Below, in pieces: positions 9,540 to 59,497 of a stretch of DNA of 64,000 bases; the first letter of the stretch is position 1, and every line of letters begins with the position of its first letter. Origin of the DNA: Psychromonas antarctica. GTDB lineage: Bacteria; Pseudomonadota; Gammaproteobacteria; Enterobacterales; Psychromonadaceae. The notes below the pieces were generated by a model. That model was not told the DNA's origin. It did no database searches and saw only the letters and a list, made by a program, of their open reading frames with translations. The translations under genes and the position numbers were made by a program. The DNA is taken from the NCBI RefSeq assembly GCF_022267535.1, contig NZ_JAHNZV010000002.1:62001-126000 (forward strand), read 5' to 3'.

Positions 9540-9569
9540 CGGTGATAACGTTAATTAATCATGCATTAA

Positions 9570-11513
9570 TTATTTATCGTCTTTATTTTCTTCAGTTTCA
9601 GCAGCTGGGGACGCTGCTATTGAATCATTATCAGCAACCGTTTTGTCTTCGCTGCTTTCTTTAATTGGCTCTGCTTTCGCTGGATTATCTTTAGCCACTT
9701 CTGCATCTTCTACCCAATCTGTAGGTGGACGCACTTCAATTCTCGCCATTAAATCAGCGACTTGATCGCTATCAATTGTTTCATATTTCATTAATGCATC
9801 TTTCATTGCATGCAGTATATCAATATTATCATTTAATATTTTCTGTGCACGTTGGTAATTTTTATCAATAAAGAATTTAACTTCATCATCGATCAGTTTA
9901 CCCGTCTCATGAGAAACGACATTAGAGCGCAGTGTATTTGCATCCACGGTTAATAAAATGGGTCCTAATTTTTCGGAAAAACCCCACTCGGTAACCATAG
10001 CTCGCGCAATCGCAGATGCTTGTTTAATATCTTGAGAGGCACCTGTGGATACTTTATCAAGACCATAAATAATTTCTTCTGCAATTCGCCCGCCATAAGC
10101 AACCGCAATACTACTTTCTAATTCAATCCGATTTTGACTAATCTGATCGCCTTCAGGTAAAAATTGTGTCACGCCTAATGCGCGTCCACGCGGAATAATA
10201 GTAACTTTATGAATAGGGTGATGCTGTGGTACTAATTTAGCGACAATTGCATGCCCCGCTTCATGGTAAGCAGTCGATTCTTTATCTTCTTCGCGCATCA
10301 CTAAGCTACGTCGCTCAGCCCCCATTAAGATTTTATCACGCGCTTGCTCGAAATCTTGCTTATCAACTGTACGTTTATTGCTACGAGCCGCAAAAAGAGC
10401 CGCCTCGTTGACTAGATTGGCAAGATCCGCACCTGAGAAACCAGGCGTTCCTCGGGCAAGTACCATCGCTTGAACATCATCACTTAGCGGCACTTTGCGC
10501 ATATGCACATTAAGAATCTGCTCACGCCCACGCACGTCAGGTAAGGAAACAACGACTTGTCGGTCAAAACGCCCCGGACGTAATAAAGCAGCATCAAGTA
10601 CATCTGGGCGGTTAGTCGCTGCAATCACGATAATGCCTTCATTACCTTCAAAACCATCCATTTCAACTAATAATTGGTTGAGTGTTTGCTCGCGTTCATC
10701 ATTACCACCACCGACACCTGCACCACGTTGGCGACCTACAGCATCAATTTCATCTATAAATATAATACAAGGCGCTGATTTTTTTGCTTGTTCAAACATA
10801 TCGCGCACGCGCGAGGCACCTACACCAACAAACATCTCCACAAAATCAGAGCCGGATATAGAAAAGAATGGCACTTTAGCTTCACCCGAAATCGCTTTTG
10901 CCAACAAGGTTTTACCCGTACCAGGAGGACCAACTAAAAGTACACCAGTAGGGATACGTCCACCTAGTTTTTGAAATTTTGTTGAGTCTTTTAAGTAATC
11001 AACAAGTTCCTTAACATCTTCTTTGGCTTCATCACATCCCGCTATATCAGCAAAAGTGGTTTTGATTTGATCTTCACCCATTAGCTTGGCTTTACTTTTA
11101 CCAAATGACATGGCTCCGCCTTTGCCCCCTCCCTGCATATTACGCATGAAGAATATCCATACGCCGATTAATAGCAACATAGGGAACCAAGAAACAAAAA
11201 TAGACGCTAAGAAGCTTGTTTCTTCCGGAGGTGTACCTTTAACTAGTACATTGTTTTTGATTAAATCATTCAGCAAGTCAGGATCCGACGCGGGAATATA
11301 AGTAATAAATTTACTTTGATTACTTCTTATACCCTTGACTTCTTGCCCGTCAATTTGGACTTGTTGAATTTGTCCTTGGTTAACTTCGTTGACGAATGTT
11401 GTGTAGTCTATTTGGGACTGTTTTGCTTCATCTTTTCCAAAACCTTGGAACAGAGACATCAATACTACTGCGATGACTAACCACAATATCAGGTTCTTTG
11501 CCATATCGTTCAA
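9570..11513 (-). CDS. ftsH: ATP-dependent zinc metalloprotease FtsH
   Basis: Membrane-bound hexameric AAA+ protease that degrades misfolded membrane proteins and regulators such as LpxC and sigma-32. It has 647 residues. Two transmembrane helices (about 8-24 and 103-122) flank a periplasmic domain. The AAA domain has Walker A GPPGTGKT, Walker [13 protein letters not shown] and the second region of homology [17 protein letters not shown]. The zinc site is HEAGH with a downstream Glu/Asp. The C-terminal tail is acidic and variable. The TTG start was chosen because AGG lies 8 bases upstream and it gives an MNDMAKN N-terminus, close to the E. coli form; an ATG three codons inside is the alternative. 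It is downstream of rlmE. Confidence 0.97.
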
Positions 11514-11558
11514 GATGTAAACCTCATGTTAAGAAATAAAAATTTAGATTGTAGGTTA

Positions 11559-12227
11559 CTACAGTTTAAAACCGGTCGCTACTAAATATACTTCACGTGA
11601 ACGCGCGCGTGAAGAATCAGGTTTACGCGTTTTAACTGTTTTAAATAATTTACGTACTTCAGCCATAAACGGATCAAAATCAGATCCCATAAAGACTTTA
11701 ACAATAAAACAGCCATCTTTAACTAATACCGAACGACACATATCCAAAGCAAGTTCGACTAAATACATCGATTTAGGTTGGTCCATAGCTGCATTGCCAC
11801 TCATATTGGGTGCCATATCCGACAGCACGACATCAACCTTTTGCTCGCCAATGCGATTCAATAATGCTTTTAAGACCATCTCATCGCGAAAATCACCCTG
11901 CAAAAAATCGACACCTGCAATAGAGTCCATGGGTAATATATCGCAGGCAATTACTTTTCCTTTCAAGCCAACTGTATCAACAGCCCACTGTGACCAGCTG
12001 CCCGGCGCAGCCCCTAAATCAACAACGGTCATGCCCGAGTGAATTAGCTTGTCTTTTTTGTTGATCTCTTCCAGCTTAAAAACGGCACGTGAACGTAATC
12101 CTTTTTTATTTGCCTCTTTGACATAGAAATCATTTACATGCTCTTGCATCCAACGTTTAGAGCTACCTGAACTGCTTTTCTTCAATACACCGGGCTTAGA
12201 CGCACCCGAATTAACTCTTTTACCCAT
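11559..12227 (-). CDS. rlmE: 23S rRNA (uridine-2'-O-)-methyltransferase RlmE
   Basis: Methylates the 2'-O of U2552 in the A-loop of 23S rRNA and is heat-shock induced with ftsH in E. coli. The 222 residues form a Rossmann methyltransferase: SAM-binding [14 protein letters not shown] (about residues 70-83), acidic loop [11 protein letters not shown], then [11 protein letters not shown]. The catalytic K-D-K-E set is consistent with the visible Lys and Asp. The N-terminal extension is basic, slightly longer than the E. coli protein. It lies 45 bases upstream of ftsH. Confidence 0.96.
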
Positions 12228-45695: not shown

Positions 45696-46384
45696 GTGAA
45701 CGACAAACAGAGGTCACCACGCAACAAATACCCCCTAAAGATCCAGCGGTAAGTTACACCGAGATAGCCTGGCAAGGTGTTTGGAAAAACAACCCCGGCA
45801 TTGTGCAGTTGCTCGGTTTATGCCCTCTACTTGCGGTCACCAACACAGTAACCAATGCCCTGGGGTTGGGGATTGCCACCCTATTTGTGCTCATTGCATC
45901 GAACACTCTCATCTCCCTGATCCGCAGTTATGTGCCACAAGCAATTCGCATCCCCATCTTTGTCATGATCATCGCTTCATTAGTCACCTGCGTACAACTG
46001 CTAATGAATGCTTTTACCTATGAACTTTACCTATCACTGGGTATTTTTATTCCGTTGATTGTGACCAACTGTATTATTATTGGTCGAGCGGAGTCATTTG
46101 CCTCTAAAAACAGCGTTAAATATGCTGCTTTTGATGGTCTGATGGTGGGGTTGGGCTTCAGCCTAGTGCTAATATTATTAGGTGCAAGTCGTGAAATTTT
46201 AGCTCAAGGCACTCTTTTTGCGGGCATTGATGCATTATTAGGAGATTGGGCTAAAGAGTTAACCCTTGAGCTTTATCACGCTGACAGCCATTTTTTACTG
46301 GCAGCACTGCCACCAGGCGCTTTTATGATTATGGGTTTGATTATTGCGTTAAAAAATAAAATTGATCAGCGAGTCAGCAAATAG
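45692..46384 (+). CDS. rsxE: Rnf/Rsx electron transport subunit E
   Basis: Membrane subunit with six helices over 230 residues, homologous to Nqr[20 protein letters not shown] and [15 protein letters not shown] are diagnostic, with the Fe-site Cys. It overlaps rsxG and nth by a few bases each. Confidence 0.97.
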
Positions 46385-47034
46385 TGAATAAAATAAAGCG
46401 TCGTGAAATATTAACTCGCCTGCGTGCTGAAAATCCGACTCCACGAACAGAGCTTCACTATCATTCTCCATTTGAGTTACTGATTGCGGTTATTTTATCA
46501 GCACAAGCTACCGACGTCAGCGTTAATAAAGCGACCGCTAAACTTTACCCCGTTGCCAATACGCCGGAGTCAATTGCCGCTTTAGGCGTCGAGGGCCTAA
46601 AGCAGTATATAAAGACCATCGGCCTTTATAATAGTAAAGCGGCTAATGTGATTAAAACCTGCCAAATGCTCGCCGAACTTCATCACAGTCAAGTTCCGGA
46701 AAACCGCAATGCGCTGGAAGCCCTGCCAGGTGTCGGCAGAAAAACAGCCAATGTGGTTTTAAATACCGCTTTTGGCTGGCCAACTATTGCCGTTGATACG
46801 CATATTTTTCGCGTATCAAATCGCACTAAACTGGCTGTCGGAAAAAACGTTGAACAAGTGGAAGAGAAGTTGCTAAAAGTGATCCCTGCTGAATTTAAAG
46901 TAGATGTACACCACTGGCTTATTTTACATGGCCGTTATACCTGCCTCGCCCGTAAACCTCGCTGTGGATCCTGCATTATTGAAGATCTCTGCGAGTACTC
47001 TCCACCAAAAGAAAGCGTAAAGAAAAACAAGTAA
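46384..47034 (+). CDS. nth: Endonuclease III
   Basis: DNA glycosylase/AP lyase removing oxidised pyrimidines. 216 residues: helix-hairpin-helix NALEALPGVGRKTANVVLN with catalytic Lys, catalytic Asp in AVDTHIFRV, and 4Fe-4S ligands ARKPRCGSCIIEDLC. It starts with GTG overlapping the rsxE stop; rsx-nth order is as in E. coli. It is the last core gene before the accessory island. Confidence 0.97.
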   Translation: MNKIKRREILTRLRAENPTPRTELHYHSPFELLIAVILSAQATDVSVNKATAKLYPVANTPESIAALGVEGLKQYIKTIGLYNSKAANVIKTCQMLAELHHSQVPENRNALEALPGVGRKTANVVLNTAFGWPTIAVDTHIFRVSNRTKLAVGKNVEQVEEKLLKVIPAEFKVDVHHWLILHGRYTCLARKPRCGSCIIEDLCEYSPPKESVKKNK

Positions 47035-47142: not shown

Positions 47143-48468
47143 ATGGTTAATTTCGGTAAAAATATTAAAGTAAATATTTATAGAGATACCATGGGTTACT
47201 CATTTCCTTTGGTGGTGCGAAGCAATGTTTTCCCTGCTTGTTTGTATCTCAATGCGTACTTGAATGGTAATCACAACTCACCTTTTTCCAAGGGAAATAA
47301 AGGCTCAAGCACGCAAGCGCCAAGTCTAAATACTCGCATAAAGTACGCTTACGAGTTAAAAATTTTGTATTGTTATTTCACAAAAAAGGACATAAATCTA
47401 GTTGATAGGGTTGCTGATGGTGAGCTCCTTTCAAGGGTAGAGGTGAAGGATTTTGTTCGAGCATGTAAGCTCTATACTGATGATAACGCTTCGCAAGAAA
47501 GCTCGAATGTAACCAGTATTACAGATAAGCGTATCAGAGACGCTATCCATGCAACAGCAAACAGTCACTCGCAAGTATCTGCGCACACCTTTCGTCAGCG
47601 CTTAATTCGTCTGAGAAGCTATATTGAGTATTTGTACGTCTGCCATCATTACGACCAAGCCTCTACAGAAGAGAATGCTAAAACTGACGATAAATTCAGA
47701 GCTTTTCAGCTCTATATCAATAAGTTTATTTCAGGCTCTCGAAAAGATAACACAATCACAAAAGACGCCTTTGAACCCGCCATTTCAACAGATAAATTCT
47801 TTGAGTTGCTCGAAACCATTAAAGAAAGCTCACCGAAAAACCCATTCAAATCGAGTAAGCTGAGAAATCAAATCATCATGCAAATACTGATTGATACAGG
47901 TGTTCGAGTCGGCGCAGTTTTAAAGCTCAAGATTAGTGATTTAGTGGATGATTGGGATAACCCTCGATTCCTTCTTACTAGAACGCCTGACGATGCTACG
48001 GATACTAGGCGTATACCTGCTGCAAATAAAACCAAAGCACTTTCAATATCGGTCTCGTCAGATTTAATGAAGCTAATCAAGCTCTACGTATCAACGATGC
48101 GGGTATCACGATCTAGCGCTCATGAACATGATTTCGTTTTTGTTTCGGAAAAAGGAGTTACATCAGGCCAACCTATATCTTACAAGGCAATTCACAAACT
48201 GGTGGATAAGTTTGGTGACGCAGTTGGTATCAATTTGCACCCTCACAAGCTAAGACACAAGTGGAATGAAGTTTTTACTGACAAAGCGGAAGAGGCAGGT
48301 TTTGAGCCGGCGCAGATTGAAGATATGCGTAAATACAGCATGGGTTGGGTTGAAGACTCCAAAATGGCGCAAACCTACAATGAGTTTAAATTGGCGGTAA
48401 AAGTTCAAGAACTCTCTGCGAAAAATCAATGTAAATCTGTACCAAGTCTTGGAGGCGTTAATGAATAA
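47143..48468 (+). CDS. Tyrosine recombinase, IntA-like
   Basis: First recombinase of the island, 441 residues. The catalytic domain has Arg I at about R255 (DTGVRVGAVLKL), a likely beta Lys in NKTKALSIS, HKLR at H368-R371, Trp at about 402 in the second His position, and nucleophile Y412 (MAQTYNEF). All core residues are thus present. The N-terminal part (1-210) would bind core sites. SE-type IntA or gamma-mobile-trio recombinase GmtY by position and size; the exact name is uncertain. It overlaps tfp by 8 bases. Confidence 0.85.
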   Translation: MVNFGKNIKVNIYRDTMGYSFPLVVRSNVFPACLYLNAYLNGNHNSPFSKGNKGSSTQAPSLNTRIKYAYELKILYCYFTKKDINLVDRVADGELLSRVEVKDFVRACKLYTDDNASQESSNVTSITDKRIRDAIHATANSHSQVSAHTFRQRLIRLRSYIEYLYVCHHYDQASTEENAKTDDKFRAFQLYINKFISGSRKDNTITKDAFEPAISTDKFFELLETIKESSPKNPFKSSKLRNQIIMQILIDTGVRVGAVLKLKISDLVDDWDNPRFLLTRTPDDATDTRRIPAANKTKALSISVSSDLMKLIKLYVSTMRVSRSSAHEHDFVFVSEKGVTSGQPISYKAIHKLVDKFGDAVGINLHPHKLRHKWNEVFTDKAEEAGFEPAQIEDMRKYSMGWVEDSKMAQTYNEFKLAVKVQELSAKNQCKSVPSLGGVNE

Positions 48469-50110
48469 ATCTCAGCTCTTCACCTTAAACAAAGAGTACA
48501 CTGGTCAAAGAACGTTCTCAGCTAGAGAAAATGGCTACACATTTGATATATTGTCTGATGAATGGTCGCTTGGATATAAAAACACACTTTATTTAGAGTG
48601 GATGAATGAACTGAGCGTCGATAACGCCACTTTTCTCGATTTGAGGCTATCAATAGCCCATTCTACTTCGTACTATGCATTCAGTAGCGTGAATGGTCAC
48701 GTAAGCACACTTAAAACTATCATCAATCACCTTGATATCAATGAATTTAATGCATGGTGGTTAACGCTAGATAGTTACAAAAAAAATGTTCGAAAGGCAC
48801 TGTTTTTTTTTCAGCGTAGTGATGAATACCACTCATCAACACTTACCCCTTTGTATGACTCAATTAAAGAGGTAAATCTAGGTGGCTGGAATCATATTAA
48901 AGGGATTCTTGACATAAAAAAAGGCGCTTACAGTGAAATTGAGCATGATAATCTTCTAGAGGCACTTCGTATTGAAACCCTTCAAGCGCTAAATGGCGAA
49001 ATATTGACCCACAAAACATTTACACGTTTTCGGAACGTGATTGCAAGCCAACTCATGGTGGCAATTGTAAGGCGGCCTGTTCAACTTGTGAAAATCAAAT
49101 GGTGTGATGTTTTACGAGTTGGTCAAGAGTTTCAGTCGCACAAAGAACCTGACCGAGATTGGCACCCCATTACACAGCATCTATTTTCAGATGTCGAGCA
49201 GTTACACCTTCGAACTTTTAAGGGTAAGGATGGGGAGTTTCGTTTTAACGCAGAATCACGTTCACACCGTTTAGAGCCTGATTTTTCTAGAGTGTTATTA
49301 TGCTATTATCAGGCTTATGAAAACCTCCTTTCAAACCAGTTACATAAAAGCAATATCAATCTATGTGGTGATGAAATGACAGAGTTAATGAGGCGTTTAC
49401 CCCTACTGCCAGAGCAAAGCCTCTTTAGTTCTGGGTATCAATCAAAGCCTGAGATTTTCATGGCAATCAGTGACACCTCGAAAGCATACCACATGACTTC
49501 AAATAACCTGTCTTCAGGCATCACCTATCTATTTAAAGCAAAACTCAATGCGCAGAGTGATCGATTGCTCAATAAACCCTTAGTTCTTTCAAACAATCGG
49601 TGGAGACACACGCAATTAACGCAAGCAATTTGGCAGGGATTCAGCCCTGCGCAAGTGGCATCAATTACAGGCGTGACCATTGAAGCCATTTTGCCCTACA
49701 TAGATCTCAAGGCTCAAGAGCGCGTCAAAATAGACCAAGCTTACGCGGATAACCATATTATCAAGAGGTTTGATACTGCATCGGTTCAAGAGTTACAAAA
49801 GGACAAGGCGTTTTATGTCAAAAGTCAGTTTGATGAAGAAGTGGGATACAAGTTAACCCCTGAAAATTGCTCAAGTTGCAAATCCAAAGGTGGTGCACCA
49901 ATGGGTTGCTACCCCTGTGACAACTTTAGGCCGATCGAAACAGCAAACCATCAGCAGTATCTTAATAAGGCGCAGCGTAAGCTTGAAATCAATAGTCAAT
50001 CGGCGCACCCTTCGACGGTAAAAAGACTCAAGAAAATCATCATTTACATCAAGGCAACCATTGCCCTTTGTGAAGAAAGAAAGACATTGAAGCTCGGAGG
50101 TAAAAAATGA
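48461..50110 (+). CDS. Tyrosine-recombinase-fold protein (Tfp-like)
   Basis: The 549 residues start at the ATG preceded by GGAGG inside the end of intA; an in-frame TTG four codons upstream looks unlikely. The fold is recognisable: R204-R205 in VRRPVQLVKIKW, RWRHT at 380-384 with R382, and a Tyr in LPYIDL at 413. The His two before the second Arg is Asn379 and no His/Trp precedes the Tyr normally. Catalysis may therefore be impaired. A C-terminal cysteine cluster (CSSCKSKGG...CYPCD) suggests zinc. Middle gene of the SE core; ends overlapping intB (ATGA). Confidence 0.75.
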   Translation: MNKSQLFTLNKEYTGQRTFSARENGYTFDILSDEWSLGYKNTLYLEWMNELSVDNATFLDLRLSIAHSTSYYAFSSVNGHVSTLKTIINHLDINEFNAWWLTLDSYKKNVRKALFFFQRSDEYHSSTLTPLYDSIKEVNLGGWNHIKGILDIKKGAYSEIEHDNLLEALRIETLQALNGEILTHKTFTRFRNVIASQLMVAIVRRPVQLVKIKWCDVLRVGQEFQSHKEPDRDWHPITQHLFSDVEQLHLRTFKGKDGEFRFNAESRSHRLEPDFSRVLLCYYQAYENLLSNQLHKSNINLCGDEMTELMRRLPLLPEQSLFSSGYQSKPEIFMAISDTSKAYHMTSNNLSSGITYLFKAKLNAQSDRLLNKPLVLSNNRWRHTQLTQAIWQGFSPAQVASITGVTIEAILPYIDLKAQERVKIDQAYADNHIIKRFDTASVQELQKDKAFYVKSQFDEEVGYKLTPENCSSCKSKGGAPMGCYPCDNFRPIETANHQQYLNKAQRKLEINSQSAHPSTVKRLKKIIIYIKATIALCEERKTLKLGGKK

Positions 50111-52425
50111 CAGCATTTAACCGCTATATTGCTAACCAACGCGCCTACATTGAAAATAAAATGCTGCAACCTTTAACGGGCTTTAAGAATCAAAAAGGAG
50201 AACAAGCCAAATGGGATGATATCGCGGTCATTTTTACGAATGCAACAGGGGTAACAGCAAACTTCTTATTCAATAATGACAATCAATCCAACGCAAAAAT
50301 AGGCAGCGAGTTCACCAAGGAAGACAGACTAAATGCAGAGACGCATCAGTTGCTTTTCGCTTATTTACTGGATGTACTTAAAAAGAATGTCAGTATAAAT
50401 ACTAAGAAAGCTAGGTTAGCCATCGCCAAGCAGTTTCTTATTAAACATGGCAATAACGTTGCTTCAACCAGTTTGACTGATATTCAGCGCACCATTGACA
50501 ACATGGCTTATAGTCAAGGGTTAGTCTCTTTCCTTAACTGGCTTCATCAGCATAAAATGCTTGCTACGAGCTGTAGTCCGAGTATTCCAGTACAGATACG
50601 TGGAATGAGATCTAAATCTGGGCATGAGGCAATTGAGGCAGAAAATAGCAAACTTCCCGACGAAAAAGCGCTCCTCGCGTTAGGCGCTATTTTTCATGAT
50701 GTTATTCCTCCTTTCAAAAGCGAGCAATCCGATCTAAGCGCTTGGCAGCACCTTGTCCACCTTTCGTTATACCAACTTGATGCCTTTACTTGTACCATGG
50801 TAGCTCTCGCTATGTCATCGCCTAACCGAGCAGCAGCAGAGCAAGTTCTTCTGACGAAGCAGCGTTTAAAAAGCCATACCGAAACCGTTAAGGGAAAACA
50901 GGAAACCGTTTATTATCTTAACTGGCGTGGCTCTAAGGGATATCTAGATAACCAAAAGCATTTCAATGCTGAAATGGCGAAAAGCCTTGATCGGGCTTTG
51001 CATTACACAAGTATTGTGACTGAGCCAGCAAGGGTGTTAGCAAGATTCTATAAAAATCCCGCTCAACCACTGAAAGATGTTCTTGGTGAGTTCAAACCAA
51101 GCATTGAGAATCTTAAATTGCAGTCCCCTGCGATGGGAAAGCCCATTACCCTCATACATCTTGCGTTACTCTTAGGTTTTTTCGATGGTACAGATAAAGT
51201 CGCCCGAGTGACACACGATACGCAAGGATCAATCGAGGCTCCAAACCCCAAAGGACAACCAAAACACATTAAGCCTATTGCAGAGCTTTCCCCTTTCGAT
51301 AAGCTATTGATGATATCTCAATGCTCTTGCGCTGCTGCACTTCTTGGGGTGAAGCTACACACAAAAAAGCAGTTTGAAAAATATTGCGCGGGGAGGAAAG
51401 TGCTCACGGTTGCAGAGTTTCAAAATCACTTTGTTCACACCAACCAGCCAAGCCTGACGGGTTACAATAGAAAACAAACCAAGCAAGTGGATTATGAGAA
51501 CGCCCTATTCGCCTTTACCGCAAAGCAATTAAACGAGCAAAAAGCGTCACATTTTCTATTGGTGCCTATCTCATCTTTGGAGCAATTCTTCTCTCAGGAC
51601 TTAATAAAAAACAAGGGAAAGACTCAAAAAACCATCTTTGAGCGACACGGTTTTTCTGCGGATTTTTTTATTAAACCTCATCAATTTAGGCATTGGCAGA
51701 ATGATTATTTGGCTAAAAAGGGCTTACCTCACCTACTCATCACAATGTTGTCAGGTCGAAAAAGCGCAGAGCAAACCTTAACCTACATACACACAACAGA
51801 CGCTCAAAATTCCTCAGTTATCAGTGATATCATGTATGACCAAGAAGCTGAATGTGAGGTTGAAGAAAACGTAGGTAAGCGTATGCAAAGTAAAACTCAG
51901 TATGACGCCGCGACTGAAAACCTCACTCCAACGTTCGTAACAGAAGTGGGGTTTTGCGTTCAAAACCTCACATTATCACCTTGTACATACATGACTGAAT
52001 TTGTAACTCAATGCACATTATGTCCATCTTCCTGTCATGTTGCTCATGATGAGGAAGCCATTGAACTATTAAAGAAAGACCTCAAGGTGCAAACCTATGA
52101 TTTAGAGCGAGTTCAAGACGCAATTAACTTCACCACGAGCGATGGGATGCAACAATGGTACTTAACGCATTATCGTAATACCTGTATGTTAAAAAATTTA
52201 ATAGAGGTACTTTCAGACAAGACCATAAAACAAGGTTCGATTGTACGGTATCTCACAAGCTCAAATATAATACGCATTACAGACTTGGATACTAAAACAG
52301 TTTCTGAACGAAAGTTGACCCTACCGAATCCAAACAAGGCGTTACAAGCTGCAATTGAAGCAAAAACAAAACCCGATAACACGATTGCCAAAAACAATTT
52401 TTTAGGCTTTTTGGGTTCTATATAA
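50107..52425 (+). CDS. Large tyrosine recombinase, IntB-like
   Basis: The 772 residues have a long N-terminal part, then a recombinase domain with Arg near 241 (SSPNRAAAEQ), HQFRH at H525-R528, and nucleophile Y560 (TLTYIHT). In place of the second His is Arg (LSGRKSAEQ). A zinc-like cluster CTLCPSSCH is near residue 640. By size and order it resembles IntB of SEs and, from memory, the VPA1269 family/GmtZ. It is translationally coupled with the preceding gene. Confidence 0.78.
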   Translation: MTAFNRYIANQRAYIENKMLQPLTGFKNQKGEQAKWDDIAVIFTNATGVTANFLFNNDNQSNAKIGSEFTKEDRLNAETHQLLFAYLLDVLKKNVSINTKKARLAIAKQFLIKHGNNVASTSLTDIQRTIDNMAYSQGLVSFLNWLHQHKMLATSCSPSIPVQIRGMRSKSGHEAIEAENSKLPDEKALLALGAIFHDVIPPFKSEQSDLSAWQHLVHLSLYQLDAFTCTMVALAMSSPNRAAAEQVLLTKQRLKSHTETVKGKQETVYYLNWRGSKGYLDNQKHFNAEMAKSLDRALHYTSIVTEPARVLARFYKNPAQPLKDVLGEFKPSIENLKLQSPAMGKPITLIHLALLLGFFDGTDKVARVTHDTQGSIEAPNPKGQPKHIKPIAELSPFDKLLMISQCSCAAALLGVKLHTKKQFEKYCAGRKVLTVAEFQNHFVHTNQPSLTGYNRKQTKQVDYENALFAFTAKQLNEQKASHFLLVPISSLEQFFSQDLIKNKGKTQKTIFERHGFSADFFIKPHQFRHWQNDYLAKKGLPHLLITMLSGRKSAEQTLTYIHTTDAQNSSVISDIMYDQEAECEVEENVGKRMQSKTQYDAATENLTPTFVTEVGFCVQNLTLSPCTYMTEFVTQCTLCPSSCHVAHDEEAIELLKKDLKVQTYDLERVQDAINFTTSDGMQQWYLTHYRNTCMLKNLIEVLSDKTIKQGSIVRYLTSSNIIRITDLDTKTVSERKLTLPNPNKALQAAIEAKTKPDNTIAKNNFLGFLGSI

Positions 52426-52436
52426 GGAAACGAGAA

Positions 52437-52859
52437 ATGGCATCAAAGTCACTTGATACAGAGCAACAAATCTCAATACAAGCTGTAATTCGCAGTTGGG
52501 ATGGTAAGTTAACATGGGATTTACTGGTCACGAAAATTGAATCTAGCCTTGCAATTACGACGTCTCGACAGACGCTGGACACATACGTCAACATCAAAAA
52601 TGAATACAAAGAGAAAAAGCGTTTACTTAAAGGTAAGCCTATCTCAACAACAGATACAAAGCTTGTATCGTATCTTGAGAAGGACATTGACTTAGCTGAA
52701 AAAGTTATTCAATTAGAAGCGGAAGTGAAAGTGGCAAAGGATGAAGTTGGCTACTTGCAAGCCTTTATACAGAAAATTGCCAATATTGGTGAGAGTAATC
52801 CTGCTGTAATGGATGTTTTCAATAGAACATTGCAAGACATTGAGTCTAAAGCTAAATAA
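52437..52859 (+). CDS. Small recombination accessory protein (SRAP/GmtX-like)
   Basis: A 140-residue helical protein starting with an AAGGA RBS 11 bases after intB. The second half (about 70-120) is a heptad-like coiled coil rich in Glu/Lys/Val. An N-terminal part resembles a helix-turn-helix (SLAITTSRQTLDTYV). SE elements code for a protein of this size here (srap), needed for recombination; gamma-mobile-trio nomenclature calls the third member GmtX. No direct proof. Confidence 0.6.
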   Translation: MASKSLDTEQQISIQAVIRSWDGKLTWDLLVTKIESSLAITTSRQTLDTYVNIKNEYKEKKRLLKGKPISTTDTKLVSYLEKDIDLAEKVIQLEAEVKVAKDEVGYLQAFIQKIANIGESNPAVMDVFNRTLQDIESKAK

Positions 52860-52915
52860 CACTCTTCTATAATAAAATATGTTAAACCTTAATCGAAAAA
52901 AACAGAGGTCTAATA

Positions 52916-53353
52916 ATGGCAAGTGGTCAGCAAAAAGCGCAGCAAAACCTTGAGGCATTTGAGGTATGGAAAGCGACACAAACCGATGATGACTTTAAAC
53001 AAATCGTGTTCAGAGGTCAGCTTAACCGCATCGAAGTGGCAAAAAGCATCGGCTGTGGAAAATCAGCCCTAAATCAAAACCCAGCCCTCAAAAAAACACT
53101 CAAGGCATTAGAAGATGAACTACGTGACAAAGGTGTGCTCCCTCCTTTAACGGAATCGGCCAAGAAGAATGCGGATAAACCCAAAGCCTACGACAGCACT
53201 ACTAATCGTAAGTTACTGGATTCAAAACGGGTATCGTCATTAGAGGTAGAGAACATTGAATTGAAAGCCAAGGTCAAAGAGCTTGAAAAGCGACTTGAAC
53301 GCTTTGGTGAGCTGTCTGAGACTCTATCTGAAATGGGATTAATGCCGCGATGA
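52916..53353 (+). CDS. VPA1267-like island protein
   Basis: A 145-residue protein: N-terminal helix-turn-helix-like region (about 35-60, LNRIEVAKSIGCGKSALNQN) and a C-terminal coiled coil (about 103-135, SLEVENIELKAKVKELEKRL). It resembles from memory the VPA1267 family that follows the recombinase trio in Vibrio islands. Its stop overlaps the helicase start (ATGA), so the two are coupled. Possible DNA-binding cofactor or regulator; function unknown. Confidence 0.6.
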   Translation: MASGQQKAQQNLEAFEVWKATQTDDDFKQIVFRGQLNRIEVAKSIGCGKSALNQNPALKKTLKALEDELRDKGVLPPLTESAKKNADKPKAYDSTTNRKLLDSKRVSSLEVENIELKAKVKELEKRLERFGELSETLSEMGLMPR

Positions 53354-55373
53354 ATCCCGTTTTGAATGAAGACAAAATGCGCGTTACGAGCATCCCTTAT
53401 CGCTCAACTAAATTGGTGATATTTAGCGGTGTACCACTGGCGCTAGACTCTTACAAAACCAATAATGGCAAATATTATGTCACCATCAAAGCTAACCCTG
53501 ATAGCATCCCCATTCAACCCACGCTAGGTCAGCATTGGTCGGTCAAAGGTACTCGCCAAATTAAAGATGTCGAAACTGGCGATTATTTAATGAAGCAACA
53601 CACCTATGATTCACCAGAGCATATTGAATGTGCCTTGCCAGAAACAGGTGAGCAACTGATACGCTTTATAGCTAAAGAAAAGGACTTCAAAGGGATTGGT
53701 GAAAGCAAAGCTAGAGCGCTCTGGCAGCTCCTAGGTAAAGACTTCCATGCCACCTTGAGAAAAGATACGTCTGAATCCAGAGAATGCCTGACATCGATTC
53801 TAAATGAAGGCTCAATAGAAGCGCTCTTTAAAGGCTACGCCAAGTATAAGAATCTGTCGTATTGCAACTGGATGAGTGAGCACCAAATCCCCGCCAGTGT
53901 ACAGCAACGGCTACTTAAACATCATGGCGAAGCCTCCATAGATGTTATCAAGGGTAATCCCTACACACTGATTGGCTTTGGTCTGTCTTTCAGCGCCATT
54001 GACGATATCATTAAGGCAACGGATTTTAAGAGCGATATTACACAGGATGACCCAAGAAGACTCAGTGCGGCTCTAGAAATGGCAATCCGAAAAGAGATTG
54101 AAAAAGGTCATACTTACACCACTCAGAACGCCATAAAACCAACCGTTAAGAAACTTCTTGGTAATGCCGAACTGACAAGCCAAGCATTTGTGGCTGGTCA
54201 TCAAAAGGCACAATTCATTCTAAATGGCGAGACAGGTACATACCACCCAACAGCTCAACTGCTGATGGAATCTGTGGTAGTAAAACGGCTATTAGCACTT
54301 GCTGAGCAAAAACACTTATATGATGAGCATGCAAATTCGGCCTATTTGTCTGCGGCTGATGAATTGCCCTATGAGTTAACTGAACGCCAAAGCGAAGCTG
54401 TAATGACTGCTTTAGACAATGCGGTAGCTTGTATTACAGGCGGTGCAGGAACGGGTAAAACAACAGTGTTAAGAACCGCACTTCGGGCTTATCATCAATT
54501 AGGCTATGAGATCCACGCGGTAGCACTATCAGGCCGAGCGGCTATGCGTTTGCACGAATCGATTGGATTCAAAACAATGACGATTGCGGCCTTACTACGC
54601 AAGGAAGTCATTGAACCAAGCAATGAACAACCTAAAAACCTGTTAGTCATCGATGAAGCTTCAATGATTGATCTGCCGACCATGTACCGATTGGTGATCC
54701 ATTTACATCCCTCAACACACATTATATTCACAGGTGATCCAGACCAATTACCACCTATCGGCTGTGGCAAGGTGTTATCAGATATCGTTGAGTCAAAGGT
54801 CATCGCAAATACCATGTTAGACATTGTTAAACGACAAGACGGATCAACAGGGATACCTGAGTATTCAAAGTTAATTAACGCGGGGGTTGTGCCTGAAAAC
54901 ATTAGCACTGGATCGATTACTTTTCATGAAACACAGAAAGAAGAAATTGCTCAAACTTGTACAACGCTATTCCAAGCCTCTCCTGATGATAGCCGTATAA
55001 TGGGGGCAACAAAGGTGATGGTTGCTGACATTAACAAGTTGACTCAAAACGCTACAAACCTTAACGGGCAAAGACTTGAGTTTGAGTGGCATGGTGAAAA
55101 GTTCTTCCGTGACCTACGTAAGGGTGACGTTATTTTGTTCACGCAAAACAATTACGATAAAGGCATTCAAAACGGTTCATTAGGCGTGTTGTCATCAGTT
55201 GAATCCGTTGGAGAAAGCTATGGTTCTGTTGTGCTAGATACAGGTGATAATGTTGAAATTACACAGCCTGTATTGGACTGCATGGAATTAGGTTACTGCA
55301 TTACGCTCCACAAAGCACAAGGTTCGCAATTTCCACGCATTATTATAGCGTTACAAAAAGGTATGATAGTTGA
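53350..55373 (+). pseudogene. RecD-like helicase, 3' end lost at IS21
   Basis: Superfamily-1B helicase. The first ~200 residues contain helix-hairpin-helix-like repeats as in RecD2. Walker A GGAGTGKTT has its Lys at 370, Walker B is VIDEASMID, motif III GDPDQLPPIG, and motif V/VI region YCITLHKAQGSQFPRI near the break. Native residues end at about 674 (KGMIVD). The expected motif with AITRA is missing and an IS-derived stop follows about 13 codons later. Activity is doubtful without the last motif. SE-type islands carry cargo after the core, and a helicase downstream of the small genes fits that. Confidence 0.8.
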
Positions 55374-55552
55374 TGCATATTCTCACCCATCCCGATCACC
55401 CATTCTCATGTAAGCCGATCACTTGTTCTCACTTACCCCGATCACCTATTCTCATCGATGCCGATCACTTTTTTTAAGTAAAAGGTACTCAAAAATCATT
55501 TTGCTTTGTTAAACCCGCATACTTTCTTTTTGTTTTTAAAAAGGAAAGGTTT

Positions 55553-57100
55553 ATGCCAGCAGAGTCAATTTCAATGAGAAAACTAAAAGAGATATTGCGC
55601 TTAAAGTATCAAGCCAAACTATCACACCGTAAAATAGCTAAAAGCCTATCGATATCAGCATCAACGATCTCCAACTACATTACTCGTGCAAAAATGATGG
55701 GGATTGAAGCGTGGCCATTGCCTGATGAATGGACGGATACAAAGCTTAATAAAGCCTTTCTACAAACTAAACACACACCAAGAACGGCTATTCCTTTACC
55801 GAACTGGCCTGAATTTCAACTTGAGTTAAAGCGTAAAGGGGTTACTAAACAACTGCTCTGGCAGGAGTATGTTGAGCGTAATAGCGACAACTATTACAGC
55901 TACCCACAGCTCTGTAGATACTATAAAGAATGGGCAAGGAAGCTACAGCCTTCAATGCGCCAAAACCATAAGGCGGGTGAAAAGCTCTTTATTGATTATT
56001 GCGGGCCAACACTCCCGCTTGTTAACCCTGACACTGGAGAGATACGAACAGCACAAGTCTTTGTCGCAGTACTTGGCGCCTCTAATTACACTTATGCTGA
56101 AGCAACACTCTCTCAGAAGCTTGAAGATTGGGTAATGAGTCATGTGCGGTGCTTTGAATTTTTGGGTGGTGTGCCTGACTTACTGATCCCCGACAACTTG
56201 AAATCAGGAACAACTCGCGCTTGTAAATATGATCCTGATTTAAACCCCACGTATCAGCAAATGGCAGCACATTACAATGTCACCATTTTACCCGCCAGAC
56301 CACTTAAACCAAAGGATAAAGCGAAGGCTGAGAATGGTGTGTTGATTGTTGAACGCTGGATAATGTCGGTGTTGCGTCATGAGGCATTTTATTCTTTAAC
56401 GCATTTAAATCAACGTATTAAAGAGTTACTGTTACTGATGAACAACAAACCTTTTCAAAAAATATCGGGTACTCGGTCATCATTATTTAACAGCATAGAC
56501 TTGCCTGCATTGAAGCCTTTACCCCGGCAACATTATCAATATACCTACATTAAAAAAGTGCTCGTCCACATTGATTATCATGTTGAAGTTGAAAAGCACT
56601 ACTACTCAGTCCCTTACGGGCTGATCCGAAAACGATTAGAAGCGCATGTTACCCAAAAGATGATCTGTATTTACCATCAAGGTAACTGCATTGCACAACA
56701 TATAAAATCAACGAAAATCGGCGGACATAGCACCCTCAATGACCACATGCCTAAATCTCATCAAGAGTACACAAAATGGACGCCTGAGCGTTTTGAAAGC
56801 TGGGCAGGCTCATTGGGTGATGCAGTATTAGAGTGGGTTAAATTTCAATTAAACAATAAGCAACATCCGCAGCAAAGCTATCGCGTCTGTCTGGGGCTAC
56901 TTACTCTGAATAAAAAATATCCTAAAGATCGCCTTAATGCAGCTTGCAGACGCGGGCTTGATACAGGGGCATATCGATTGCAAAGTATTAAAGCAATCTT
57001 AAATAATCGCTTAGACCAACTACCACTGATCTCTGATTCATCCGATAAATTAATCAATGTCGAACACGATAATCTCCGTGGCGAAAACTATTACCATTAA
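55553..57100 (+). CDS. istA: IS21-family transposase IstA
   Basis: The 515 residues contain an N-terminal helix-turn-helix (about 24-45, SHRKIAKSLSISASTISNY) and an rve integrase core with D in LFIDYCG, D in LIPDNLKSG and E in KAKAENGVL, the DDE triad. It is followed after 9 bases by istB. Intact, so the IS may be active. Confidence 0.94.
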   Translation: MPAESISMRKLKEILRLKYQAKLSHRKIAKSLSISASTISNYITRAKMMGIEAWPLPDEWTDTKLNKAFLQTKHTPRTAIPLPNWPEFQLELKRKGVTKQLLWQEYVERNSDNYYSYPQLCRYYKEWARKLQPSMRQNHKAGEKLFIDYCGPTLPLVNPDTGEIRTAQVFVAVLGASNYTYAEATLSQKLEDWVMSHVRCFEFLGGVPDLLIPDNLKSGTTRACKYDPDLNPTYQQMAAHYNVTILPARPLKPKDKAKAENGVLIVERWIMSVLRHEAFYSLTHLNQRIKELLLLMNNKPFQKISGTRSSLFNSIDLPALKPLPRQHYQYTYIKKVLVHIDYHVEVEKHYYSVPYGLIRKRLEAHVTQKMICIYHQGNCIAQHIKSTKIGGHSTLNDHMPKSHQEYTKWTPERFESWAGSLGDAVLEWVKFQLNNKQHPQQSYRVCLGLLTLNKKYPKDRLNAACRRGLDTGAYRLQSIKAILNNRLDQLPLISDSSDKLINVEHDNLRGENYYH

Positions 57101-57109
57101 GGAATACTC

Positions 57110-57859
57110 ATGAATAAACACTTATCCGAGCAACTTAATAATCTACGTCTTAGCCACGTATTTAGTGCACTTGAAGCACAAAATGCACAGCCCCAACACT
57201 ATCAAGATCTCAGCTTCCAGGAACGATTAACACTACTACTTGATGAAGAAATTACGCAGCGAGAGCAACGTAAAATAGGACGGCTAGTCAAGCAAGCTAA
57301 ATTCCGATTACAGGCAATTCCAGAGCAGATCGATTACCGAGCGGGTCGTGGTATTGAAAAAGCAAAGGTTCGCAGTTTGCTTGAAGGTCACTGGTTAACT
57401 CACCACCAAAACCTTATTTTTACAGGTGCTACTGGCTGTGGAAAAACATTTATGGGTTGCGCCATTGGCCAATACTTCTGCCAGCAAGGCAAGAGCGCTC
57501 GCTACTTTAGGTTAAAGGGATTGCAAGAACACCTACAACGCGTCCATGGAGAGGGAAGTTACCCTCGATTTCTTGCTCAACTTAATAAATGCCAAATCCT
57601 GATCATTGATGACTGGGGAATGGAAAGCTTAACGGGTCAAGAACGGAGCGATCTACTTGATATTATCGATGCGCGGCACGGGCAAAGTTCGATGATCTTG
57701 ATGAGTCAGCTACCGATTTCGAAATGGCATGAGTTAATTGGGGAAGCAACTTATGCGGATGCGATCATGGATAGATTGATCCACTGTGCAGAGCGATTTG
57801 AATTAAAAGGCGAGTCGATGCGTAAAATGGGGGCAAAGGTATTGACGAATATTGAATAA
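57110..57859 (+). CDS. istB: IS21-family helper ATPase IstB
   Basis: AAA+ ATPase of 249 residues that assists IstA target capture. Walker A GATGCGKT near residues 105-112, Walker B LIIDDWGME, sensor arginine region DRLIHCAERFE. Intact. Confidence 0.95.
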   Translation: MNKHLSEQLNNLRLSHVFSALEAQNAQPQHYQDLSFQERLTLLLDEEITQREQRKIGRLVKQAKFRLQAIPEQIDYRAGRGIEKAKVRSLLEGHWLTHHQNLIFTGATGCGKTFMGCAIGQYFCQQGKSARYFRLKGLQEHLQRVHGEGSYPRFLAQLNKCQILIIDDWGMESLTGQERSDLLDIIDARHGQSSMILMSQLPISKWHELIGEATYADAIMDRLIHCAERFELKGESMRKMGAKVLTNIE

Positions 57860-57970
57860 AGCATTACAACTCAATCTCACCGTAAAGTGACGAGTAAAAG
57901 TGATCGGCATGAATGAGAATGACTGATCGGCTTCGGTGAGAATGAGTGATCGACATCATGAGAATACGCA

Positions 57971-59050: not shown

Positions 59051-59497
59051 TTGACCAGACCGCCATCTGGGTGGCGCCTTATGGAGTACCTATTATGGAA
59101 CCCCTTGACGAACAACACTCGCCCCTTTTATCATCAATATATTATTAACTTAATACTACAAAGGAAGCGCCCTGCCACCATTGATGCGTATTCTCGTGCT
59201 GTACGTCGCATTGCAGATTACTTTCAACGTATCCTCGATACCTTAACGCCCCAAGAGCTAAAGCAACATATCGATACTCTGATAAAAACACGCTCATGGA
59301 GTACTGTAAAATCAGATCGTACAGGTTACAATTCATCTATCACTTCACGCATGAGGAAAATGGCAATGGACCGATACAGTCAAACCACCACTACTTATCA
59401 TTGCCTGTGGCCCGTTAATCCCTCGGAAAAAACAAGTTGGATCTGCCCTTGCTACCATCAAGTGATACAATTTGATGGGCTAATTCAACTGCGATAG
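59051..59497 (+). pseudogene. Frameshifted tyrosine recombinase N-terminal remnant
   Basis: One reading frame gives RKRPATIDAYSRAVRRIADY, then DTLTPQELKQHID and SWSTVKSDRTG, the SAM-like core-binding domain of recombinases that often accompany IS91-type elements. After 59323 the frame changes: the next frame reads LQFIYHF, the normal continuation, so at least one base is missing. The catalytic domain is absent. The start also looks interrupted (MEPLDEQHSPLL in another frame). Non-functional remnant. Confidence 0.6.

What the first reader, a model, noticed from the sequence alone, without database searches (positions are those of the whole stretch)
47143..55373. Triple-recombinase SE/gamma-mobile-trio-like island with a RecD-like helicase in the same operon
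Three different tyrosine-recombinase-fold proteins, a coiled-coil protein, a second small protein and a helicase run in one tightly packed operon (overlaps ATGA, short gaps). The first four match the intA-tfp-intB-srap order of strand-biased circularizing elements. The helicase joined by translational coupling to the fifth gene suggests that it takes part in element excision, unwinding or copy-out rather than being a random cargo gene. These elements are poorly understood and were described mainly in Vibrio/Shewanella; occurrence beside nth in a Psychromonas-like chromosome widens the range.
Basis: partly seen in the sequence, partly recalled or inferred. Interest (0 to 1): 0.85.

Follow-up and report, generated by a model that had tools for sequence, protein, structure and literature searches.

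The report
Three-recombinase island with swappable helicase cassette
A mobile DNA island that uses three recombinases sits at the end of the bacterial repair gene nth and carries a two-gene helicase cassette that different families of such islands repeatedly swap among themselves, which suggests a shared but unstudied step in how they move; in this particular genome the helicase has been broken by another jumping gene.

Summary
Six packed genes at 47143-55374 encode three tyrosine-recombinase-fold proteins, two small helix-turn-helix/coiled-coil proteins and a RecD2-like helicase. [quoted passage not shown] The last two (VPA1267 family plus helicase) are 90-92% and 76% identical to the tail of GMT elements. 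The helicase here is truncated: an IS21-family element removed motif VI and the C-terminus, and no right end (attR) was found, so this copy looks defective. attL lies in the last codons of nth. The same GInt lineage occupies nth in Psychromonas, Vibrio, Photobacterium and Aliagarivorans.

The new point is modularity. Of 56 helicase loci, 55 have VPA1267 directly upstream in an overlapping frame, behind at least four recombinase modules (GMT, GInt at nth, GInt at ssb, SE-related trio). Against P. marina, synonymous divergence is 0.18-0.29 in the pair but saturated or above 2 in gin genes and chromosomal neighbours. The helicase tree needs at least eight GMT/GInt switches. The pair is optional (14/32 GInts, 3/14 GMTs, 0/10 SEs). 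Likely role: VPA1267, a GinD relative, recruits the helicase to a recombination intermediate; this mechanism is inferred.

The parts
46990..47003 (+). attL core: nth 3' end joined to the GInt left end (TGCGAG/TACTCT/CCACC...). The native nth C-terminus (F/Y)KEKT.. is replaced by SPPKESVKKNK
   Evidence: Comparison with empty nth ends in relatives and with the same junction in P. marina, G375, L061, L095 and L100. Left boundary also given by the plasmid copy L013, whose homology starts at 46996
46384..47034 (+). nth (endonuclease III), host gene used as integration target; its last codons come from the element
   Evidence: ORF; alignment of nth ends in 30 loci
47143..48468 (+). ginA: tyrosine recombinase with R255, H368, R371, Y412 conserved
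   Evidence: PF00589 6.5e-16; GInt GinA homologues; conserved catalytic columns
48461..50110 (+). ginB: tyrosine-recombinase-fold protein, box-II His replaced (Asn/Arg), Arg and Tyr kept; positional counterpart of SE Tfp
   Evidence: NF041502 3.6e-24; alignment A4; hhalign to Tfp 90%
50107..52425 (+). ginC: large tyrosine recombinase with R241, K277, H525, R528, Y560 invariant; positional counterpart of SE IntB
   Evidence: alignment A2; hhalign to IntB 90%
52437..52859 (+). ginD: small HTH plus coiled-coil accessory protein
   Evidence: alignment with GinD of P. aeruginosa GInt L113 and others; AlphaFold model pLDDT 77
52916..53353 (+). VPA1267-family protein, distant GinD relative, first gene of the exchangeable cassette
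   Evidence: NF040697 198 bits; hhalign to GinD 86-91%; AlphaFold model pLDDT 85 with the same helix order
53350..55374 (+). RecD2-like SF1B helicase, C-terminally truncated (motif VI and last ~46 aa lost), second gene of the cassette
   Evidence: nearest solved structure RecD2 3e1s E 1e-33; homology ends at 55374
55375..57969 (+). IS21-family insertion (istA 55553-57100, istB 57110-57859) that interrupts the helicase; left end 55375-55379, right end about 57969
   Evidence: NF033546 and NF038214; terminal TATTCTCA/TGAGAATA; end fragments at other contig ends of the genome

Best explanation
This is a decayed GInt integrated in the 3' end of nth. Its ginABCD module catalyses attL x attR recombination (as shown experimentally for GInts elsewhere). 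It also acquired a portable two-gene cassette, VPA1267 plus a RecD2-like 5'-3' helicase, which circulates between GInt, GMT and SE-related recombinase modules. I propose that VPA1267, a GinD-like DNA-binding coiled-coil protein made in translational coupling with the helicase, tethers the helicase to the recombinase-DNA complex. The helicase would then unwind from the recombinase-made nick, helping single-strand exchange, replication of the circle (copy-out) or disassembly of the covalent intermediate. Shown: gene content, GInt relatedness, nth target, cassette linkage and repeated exchange, VPA1267-GinD resemblance, helicase truncation by an IS21-family element. Inferred: every biochemical step of the helicase and the tether role. 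In this window the helicase is most likely inactive and the element immobile.
For: GInt class: BLAST to GInt trios L050, L049, L113 and no match to the SE trio L054; sister GInts at ssb, including the second element of this genome, ssb being a published GInt target (PMC5385486). Target: nth-adjacent in every chromosomal window-type GInt tested, with attL shown in several and attR in P. marina and Aliagarivorans. Cassette: 55/56 pairs adjacent, 55/56 with an ATGA junction. Identity jumps from about 60% to 94% at the VPA1267 start. dS 0.18-0.29 in the pair, against 2.0-2.9 in nth/rsxE and saturation in gin genes. nth-GInt L061 shares only 9567-12207 with six GMT elements at 91-94% DNA identity. 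At least 8 GMT/GInt switches on the helicase tree. VPA1267-GinD profile match E 1e-6 to 5e-6 and same helix order. Divergent pairs with the same order in other GInts argue for long joint function.
Against: The cassette is dispensable: absent from 18 of 32 evaluable GInts, about 10 of 14 GMTs and all 10 evaluable SEs, and pGInt0 moves with ginABCD alone (PMC5385486). A role in mobility is therefore accessory at best. No experiment links the helicase to recombination. The VPA1267-GinD match includes coiled coil, which can inflate scores. Foldseek found no significant fold match for VPA1267.
Confidence: 0.6

Rival explanations
1. The VPA1267-helicase pair is a defence or anti-defence gene pair carried as cargo directly behind the recombination genes, where it is transcribed with them; its exchange reflects selection for defence, not for mobility.
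For: GMTs and GInts often carry defence genes (PMC12039261, PMC10121019); PADLOC helicase models match (typeIV_RecD 1.9e-45); the pair is optional.
Against: PADLOC matches are generic RecD/SF1 similarity and VPA1267 has none. Cargo usually varies in position and partner, whereas the pair holds one slot behind several recombinase modules in 55 of 56 loci. VPA1267 resembles the recombination factor GinD.
Confidence: 0.2
2. The pair aids element maintenance or establishment after transfer (for example replication restart or repair of the incoming or excised circle) rather than the recombination reaction.
For: RecD2 helicases act in repair and fork processing (established knowledge); SE circles are nicked double-stranded DNA (PMC10214605); many pairs are on conjugative plasmids.
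Against: Nothing sequence-based separates this from a copy-out role; GinD relatedness and operon coupling point to the recombination complex.
Confidence: 0.25
3. The helicase is a chance neighbour, a random passenger.
For: It is absent from many related islands.
Against: 55/56 linkage with ATGA coupling, purifying selection (dN/dS 0.06-0.11) and repeated recapture.
Confidence: 0.03
4. The element is an SE or a GMT.
For: Same gene order as SE; VPA1267 and helicase as in GMT.
Against: No BLAST or HMM match to the SE trio, marginal matches to GMT recombinases, strong matches to GInt trios.
Confidence: 0.05

Closest known systems
[quoted passage not shown] Bardaji et al. 2017, PMC5385486; Tn6571 family)
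   Same: Four-gene ginABCD operon at the left end; site-specific insertion at a gene 3' end; homologous proteins; sister copy in this genome at ssb, a published GInt target
   Different: Target here is nth, not ssb or an ABC transporter gene; carries VPA1267 plus helicase directly after ginD, which the paper does not mention; ginC here keeps the box-I Arg, whereas the paper reports it missing
Gamma-mobile-trio (GMT) elements (gmtY, VPA1269-type integrase, gmtX; Mahata et al. 2024, full text not held)
   Same: VPA1267-family protein (90-92% identity) followed by the RecD-like AAA ATPase (76% identity, truncated here)
   Different: No gmtY/gmtZ/gmtX; recombinase module unrelated at BLAST level
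Strand-biased circularizing integrative elements (SE; PMC10214605, PMC9345347)
   Same: Gene order catalytic recombinase, degenerate recombinase, large catalytic recombinase, small coiled-coil protein; 6-bp variable junction between imperfect inverted repeats
   Different: No BLAST match to SE IntA/Tfp/IntB/Srap; SEs sampled here lack the helicase (0 of 10)
RecD2 helicases (e.g. Deinococcus radiodurans RecD2, PDB 3e1s)
   Same: HHH, RecA-like and SH3 domains, SF1B motifs
   Different: Encoded on mobile elements, coupled to VPA1267; window copy lacks motif VI

Membership tests
GInt | ginABCD operon: three recombinase-like genes plus small HTH/coiled-coil gene | tested here: met
GInt | Sequence kinship to known GInt proteins | tested here: met
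   GInt trio next to ssb L050 (E 1e-23, 5e-8, 6e-27) and P. aeruginosa GInt L113; NF041502 profile over full length
GInt | GinC lacks the first catalytic Arg (reported in PMC5385486) | tested here: not met
   Gene 3 of this clade and of L050 keeps box-I Arg R241. I treat this as a subgroup difference, because gene 2 and gene 3 are homologous to GInt genes by position and sequence
GInt | Site-specific insertion at a gene end with attL/attR | tested here: met
   attL in nth here and in sisters; attR in P. marina and Aliagarivorans. attR not found in the window
GInt | Excision/integration dependent on ginABCD | not testable with these tools
   needs experiment
SE | Tfp and Srap homology | tested here: not met
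   no BLAST match between the window trio and SE-Pda04Ya311; only a distant profile match
SE | Strand-biased circularization without empty site | not testable with these tools
   needs PCR/sequencing of circles
GMT | GmtY, GmtX and VPA1269-type recombinase | tested here: not met
   GmtY 18.5 bits against a cutoff of 340; no GmtX or GmtZ match
GMT-associated VPA1267-helicase pair | VPA1267 family protein followed by RecD-like helicase | tested here: met
   198 bits against a cutoff of 90; 76-96% helicase identity; helicase truncated in this copy

The most novel reading that the evidence does not exclude
The VPA1267-helicase cassette is a general, exchangeable motor module for multi-tyrosine-recombinase transposons. 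A GinD-like adaptor loads a RecD2-type helicase on the strand nicked by the recombinases, turning site-specific recombination into replicative copy-out, and unrelated element families repeatedly capture it.
Probability: 0.35. Interest if true: 0.8.

Novelty: new variant of a known kind. Interest (0 to 1): 0.58.

Why it matters
SE, GInt and GMT elements spread resistance, defence and toxin genes, but how they copy out a circle without leaving an empty site is unknown, and no dedicated replication or unwinding factor is named in the SE and GInt papers I could read. A helicase cassette repeatedly swapped between these families is a concrete candidate for that factor. Natural plus/minus pairs at the same nth site make the question directly testable.

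Tried and rejected
SE membership: rejected after fetching the authentic SE of pAQU1. GMT membership of the trio: rejected. Right end in the window: searches for attR motifs found nothing, and downstream DNA is not syntenic with relatives at nth. A conserved 3' cassette border motif (AAACTCGTT..CCCCA) was tested: it occurs in only 13 of 47 loci and follows one helicase clade, so it is shared ancestry rather than a general cassette signal. Viral contigs gave no relatives with a helicase query. Fold search of VPA1267 gave no significant match, only weak helix-turn-helix regulators. The GMT founding paper is not held, so I could not check whether it already reports the helicase.

Full report
Observation. 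Window 47143-55374 contains six co-directional, tightly packed genes: three tyrosine-recombinase-fold proteins (441, 549-553 and 772 aa), a 140-aa protein, a 145-aa VPA1267-family protein (NF040697, 198 bits, cutoff 90) and a RecD2-like helicase (TIGR01448 7e-99). Junctions 2/3 and 5/6 are ATGA overlaps. The window lies in contig C112 of a 3.9-Mb draft genome that resembles Psychromonas: its nth-GInt is nearest in the pair to that of P. marina (L056).

Helicase integrity. Alignment with four intact GMT helicases (721-724 aa) shows that the window protein diverges after MIVD and ends in IS21-family sequence; the RAWLYTAITRA block (motif VI) and the last ~46 residues are missing. istA/istB lie immediately downstream, and IS end fragments occur at other contig ends of this draft. 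No remnant of the helicase C-terminus follows the IS. The helicase of this copy is very likely inactive.

Which family. BLASTP among trios ties the window to GInts: the trio next to ssb in K. oxytoca pKOX-86d (L050), P. rettgeri (L049), P. aeruginosa (L048) and, by profile, the P. aeruginosa GInt L113. The authentic SE of pAQU1 (L054) shows no match. Catalytic columns: gene 1 complete; gene 2 without the box-II His; gene 3 with R, K, H, R, Y. The published statement that GinC lacks the first Arg (PMC5385486) does not hold in this clade.

Target site. nth here ends in SPPKESVKKNK instead of the usual KEKT.... The same altered end and left-end sequence (TGCGAGTACTCTCCACC...) occur in P. marina, G375, Vibrio sp. 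CK2-1, Photobacterium malacitanum and V. ostreicida. Right ends were found in P. marina (element about 24 kb) and Aliagarivorans (about 13 kb): TTTTTGGTGG..., an inverted repeat of CCACCAAAAA at the left, followed by the native nth end. All ten chromosomal loci tested with window-type gin genes adjoin nth; some of these are the same genomes fetched twice. No right end was found in the window. Genome G378 has nth followed directly by a helicase C-terminal remnant, a decayed element. The second GInt of this genome (contig C2; L016/L017) lies at the 3' end of an ssb gene, a published GInt target, and has its own divergent VPA1267-like protein and a full-length helicase.

Cassette. A scan with close helicases gave 57 loci; excluding one remote RecD2-like hit, 55 of 56 have VPA1267 directly upstream, and 55 of 56 VPA1267 genes end in ATGA. 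Upstream modules are GMT (most), divergent GMT, GInt at nth, GInt at ssb, and an additional trio whose third protein matches SE IntB by profile (97.5%). Within nth GInts, window against P. marina identity is 60-68% across ginABCD and 93-95% in the pair, the jump lying at the VPA1267 start. Synonymous divergence is 0.18 (helicase) and 0.29 (VPA1267) but 2.0 (rsxE), 2.9 (nth) and saturated for gin genes. The nth GInt of Vibrio sp. CK2-1 shares with six GMT elements only the stretch from the VPA1267 start to 25-40 nt after the helicase stop, at 91-94% DNA identity. The helicase tree needs at least 8 GMT/GInt changes; strongly supported branches force 4-6 changes for most groups. The quick tree has long branches among divergent members, so the exact number is uncertain, but the recent DNA-level exchanges do not depend on it.

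How general. In 395 genomes of the order, the pair follows 14 of 32 evaluable GInts (the window, its sister and P. marina counted), 3 of 14 GMTs (a fourth has VPA1267 only at a contig end) and 0 of 10 SEs. Two nth GInts (L239, L241) lack it and one (L240) carries a very divergent version, so presence varies at one site. Detection of divergent VPA1267 by HMM may miss some; helicase detection should not.

VPA1267. Its profile matches GinD (hhalign 86-91%, E 1e-6 to 5e-6), and the VPA1267 HMM retrieved the GinD of L265 (E 1.6e-4). AlphaFold models of VPA1267 (pLDDT 85) and GinD (pLDDT 77) show the same order of a small helical domain followed by a long C-terminal helix. GinD and its SE counterpart Srap are essential for recombination (PMC5385486, PMC10214605). 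A second GinD-like factor coupled to a helicase suggests that the helicase is addressed to the recombination complex. This is inference.

Mechanism. SE circles form without an empty site and as nicked double-stranded circles, for which a copy-out route has been proposed (PMC10214605). A 5'-3' helicase could open the strand at the recombinase nick, help replication of the bridged intermediate or displace the covalently bound recombinase. Because GInt and SE cores recombine without it, it must be an enhancer or act at a later step. Rivals are a defence role and a maintenance role.

Novelty. The components are known: GInt, the VPA1267 family and a RecD-like ATPase in GMT annotations. I found no description of the pair as a unit exchanged between element families, or of nth as a GInt target, but the main GMT paper was not available. 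I file it as a new variant of a known kind.

Noticed in passing
L240 7869-8426 and L104 8972-9529: A serine resolvase gene sits between the small recombination gene and VPA1267 in two unrelated recombinase modules, exactly at the module junction.
   Followed up: no
L056 from 12175; L080 and L106 after the helicase stop: The same repeat (GTGACTACGGGTGCAAGCGGAAATAA...) follows the helicase in three elements with different recombinase modules.
   Followed up: no
L025 (genome G371), - strand 190-450: A degenerate second copy of the nth 3' end with an attL-like scar lies about 1.3 kb downstream of intact nth, possibly the footprint of a lost GInt.
   Followed up: partly
L024 (genome G378) about 2150-2420: nth followed directly by a helicase C-terminal remnant: a decayed nth GInt.
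   Followed up: partly
L060, L079, L104: An additional trio-plus-small-gene recombinase module (398/742/697/220 aa type) without NCBIfam match for its large genes; gene 3 is distantly related to SE IntB. Possibly an undescribed family.
   Followed up: partly
L056 12438-20644: Cargo of the P. marina nth GInt includes a dynamin-like protein and a ResIII-type helicase, which look like defence genes.
   Followed up: partly
window 59051-59497: N-terminal fragment of a tyrosine recombinase; similar DNA occurs in several copies in other genomes of the genus.
   Followed up: partly
G000 contig C2, L016 11928-19914 and L017 59-652: Second GInt of the same genome at ssb with a full-length divergent helicase; downstream genes include a trypsin-like protease gene.
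   Followed up: yes
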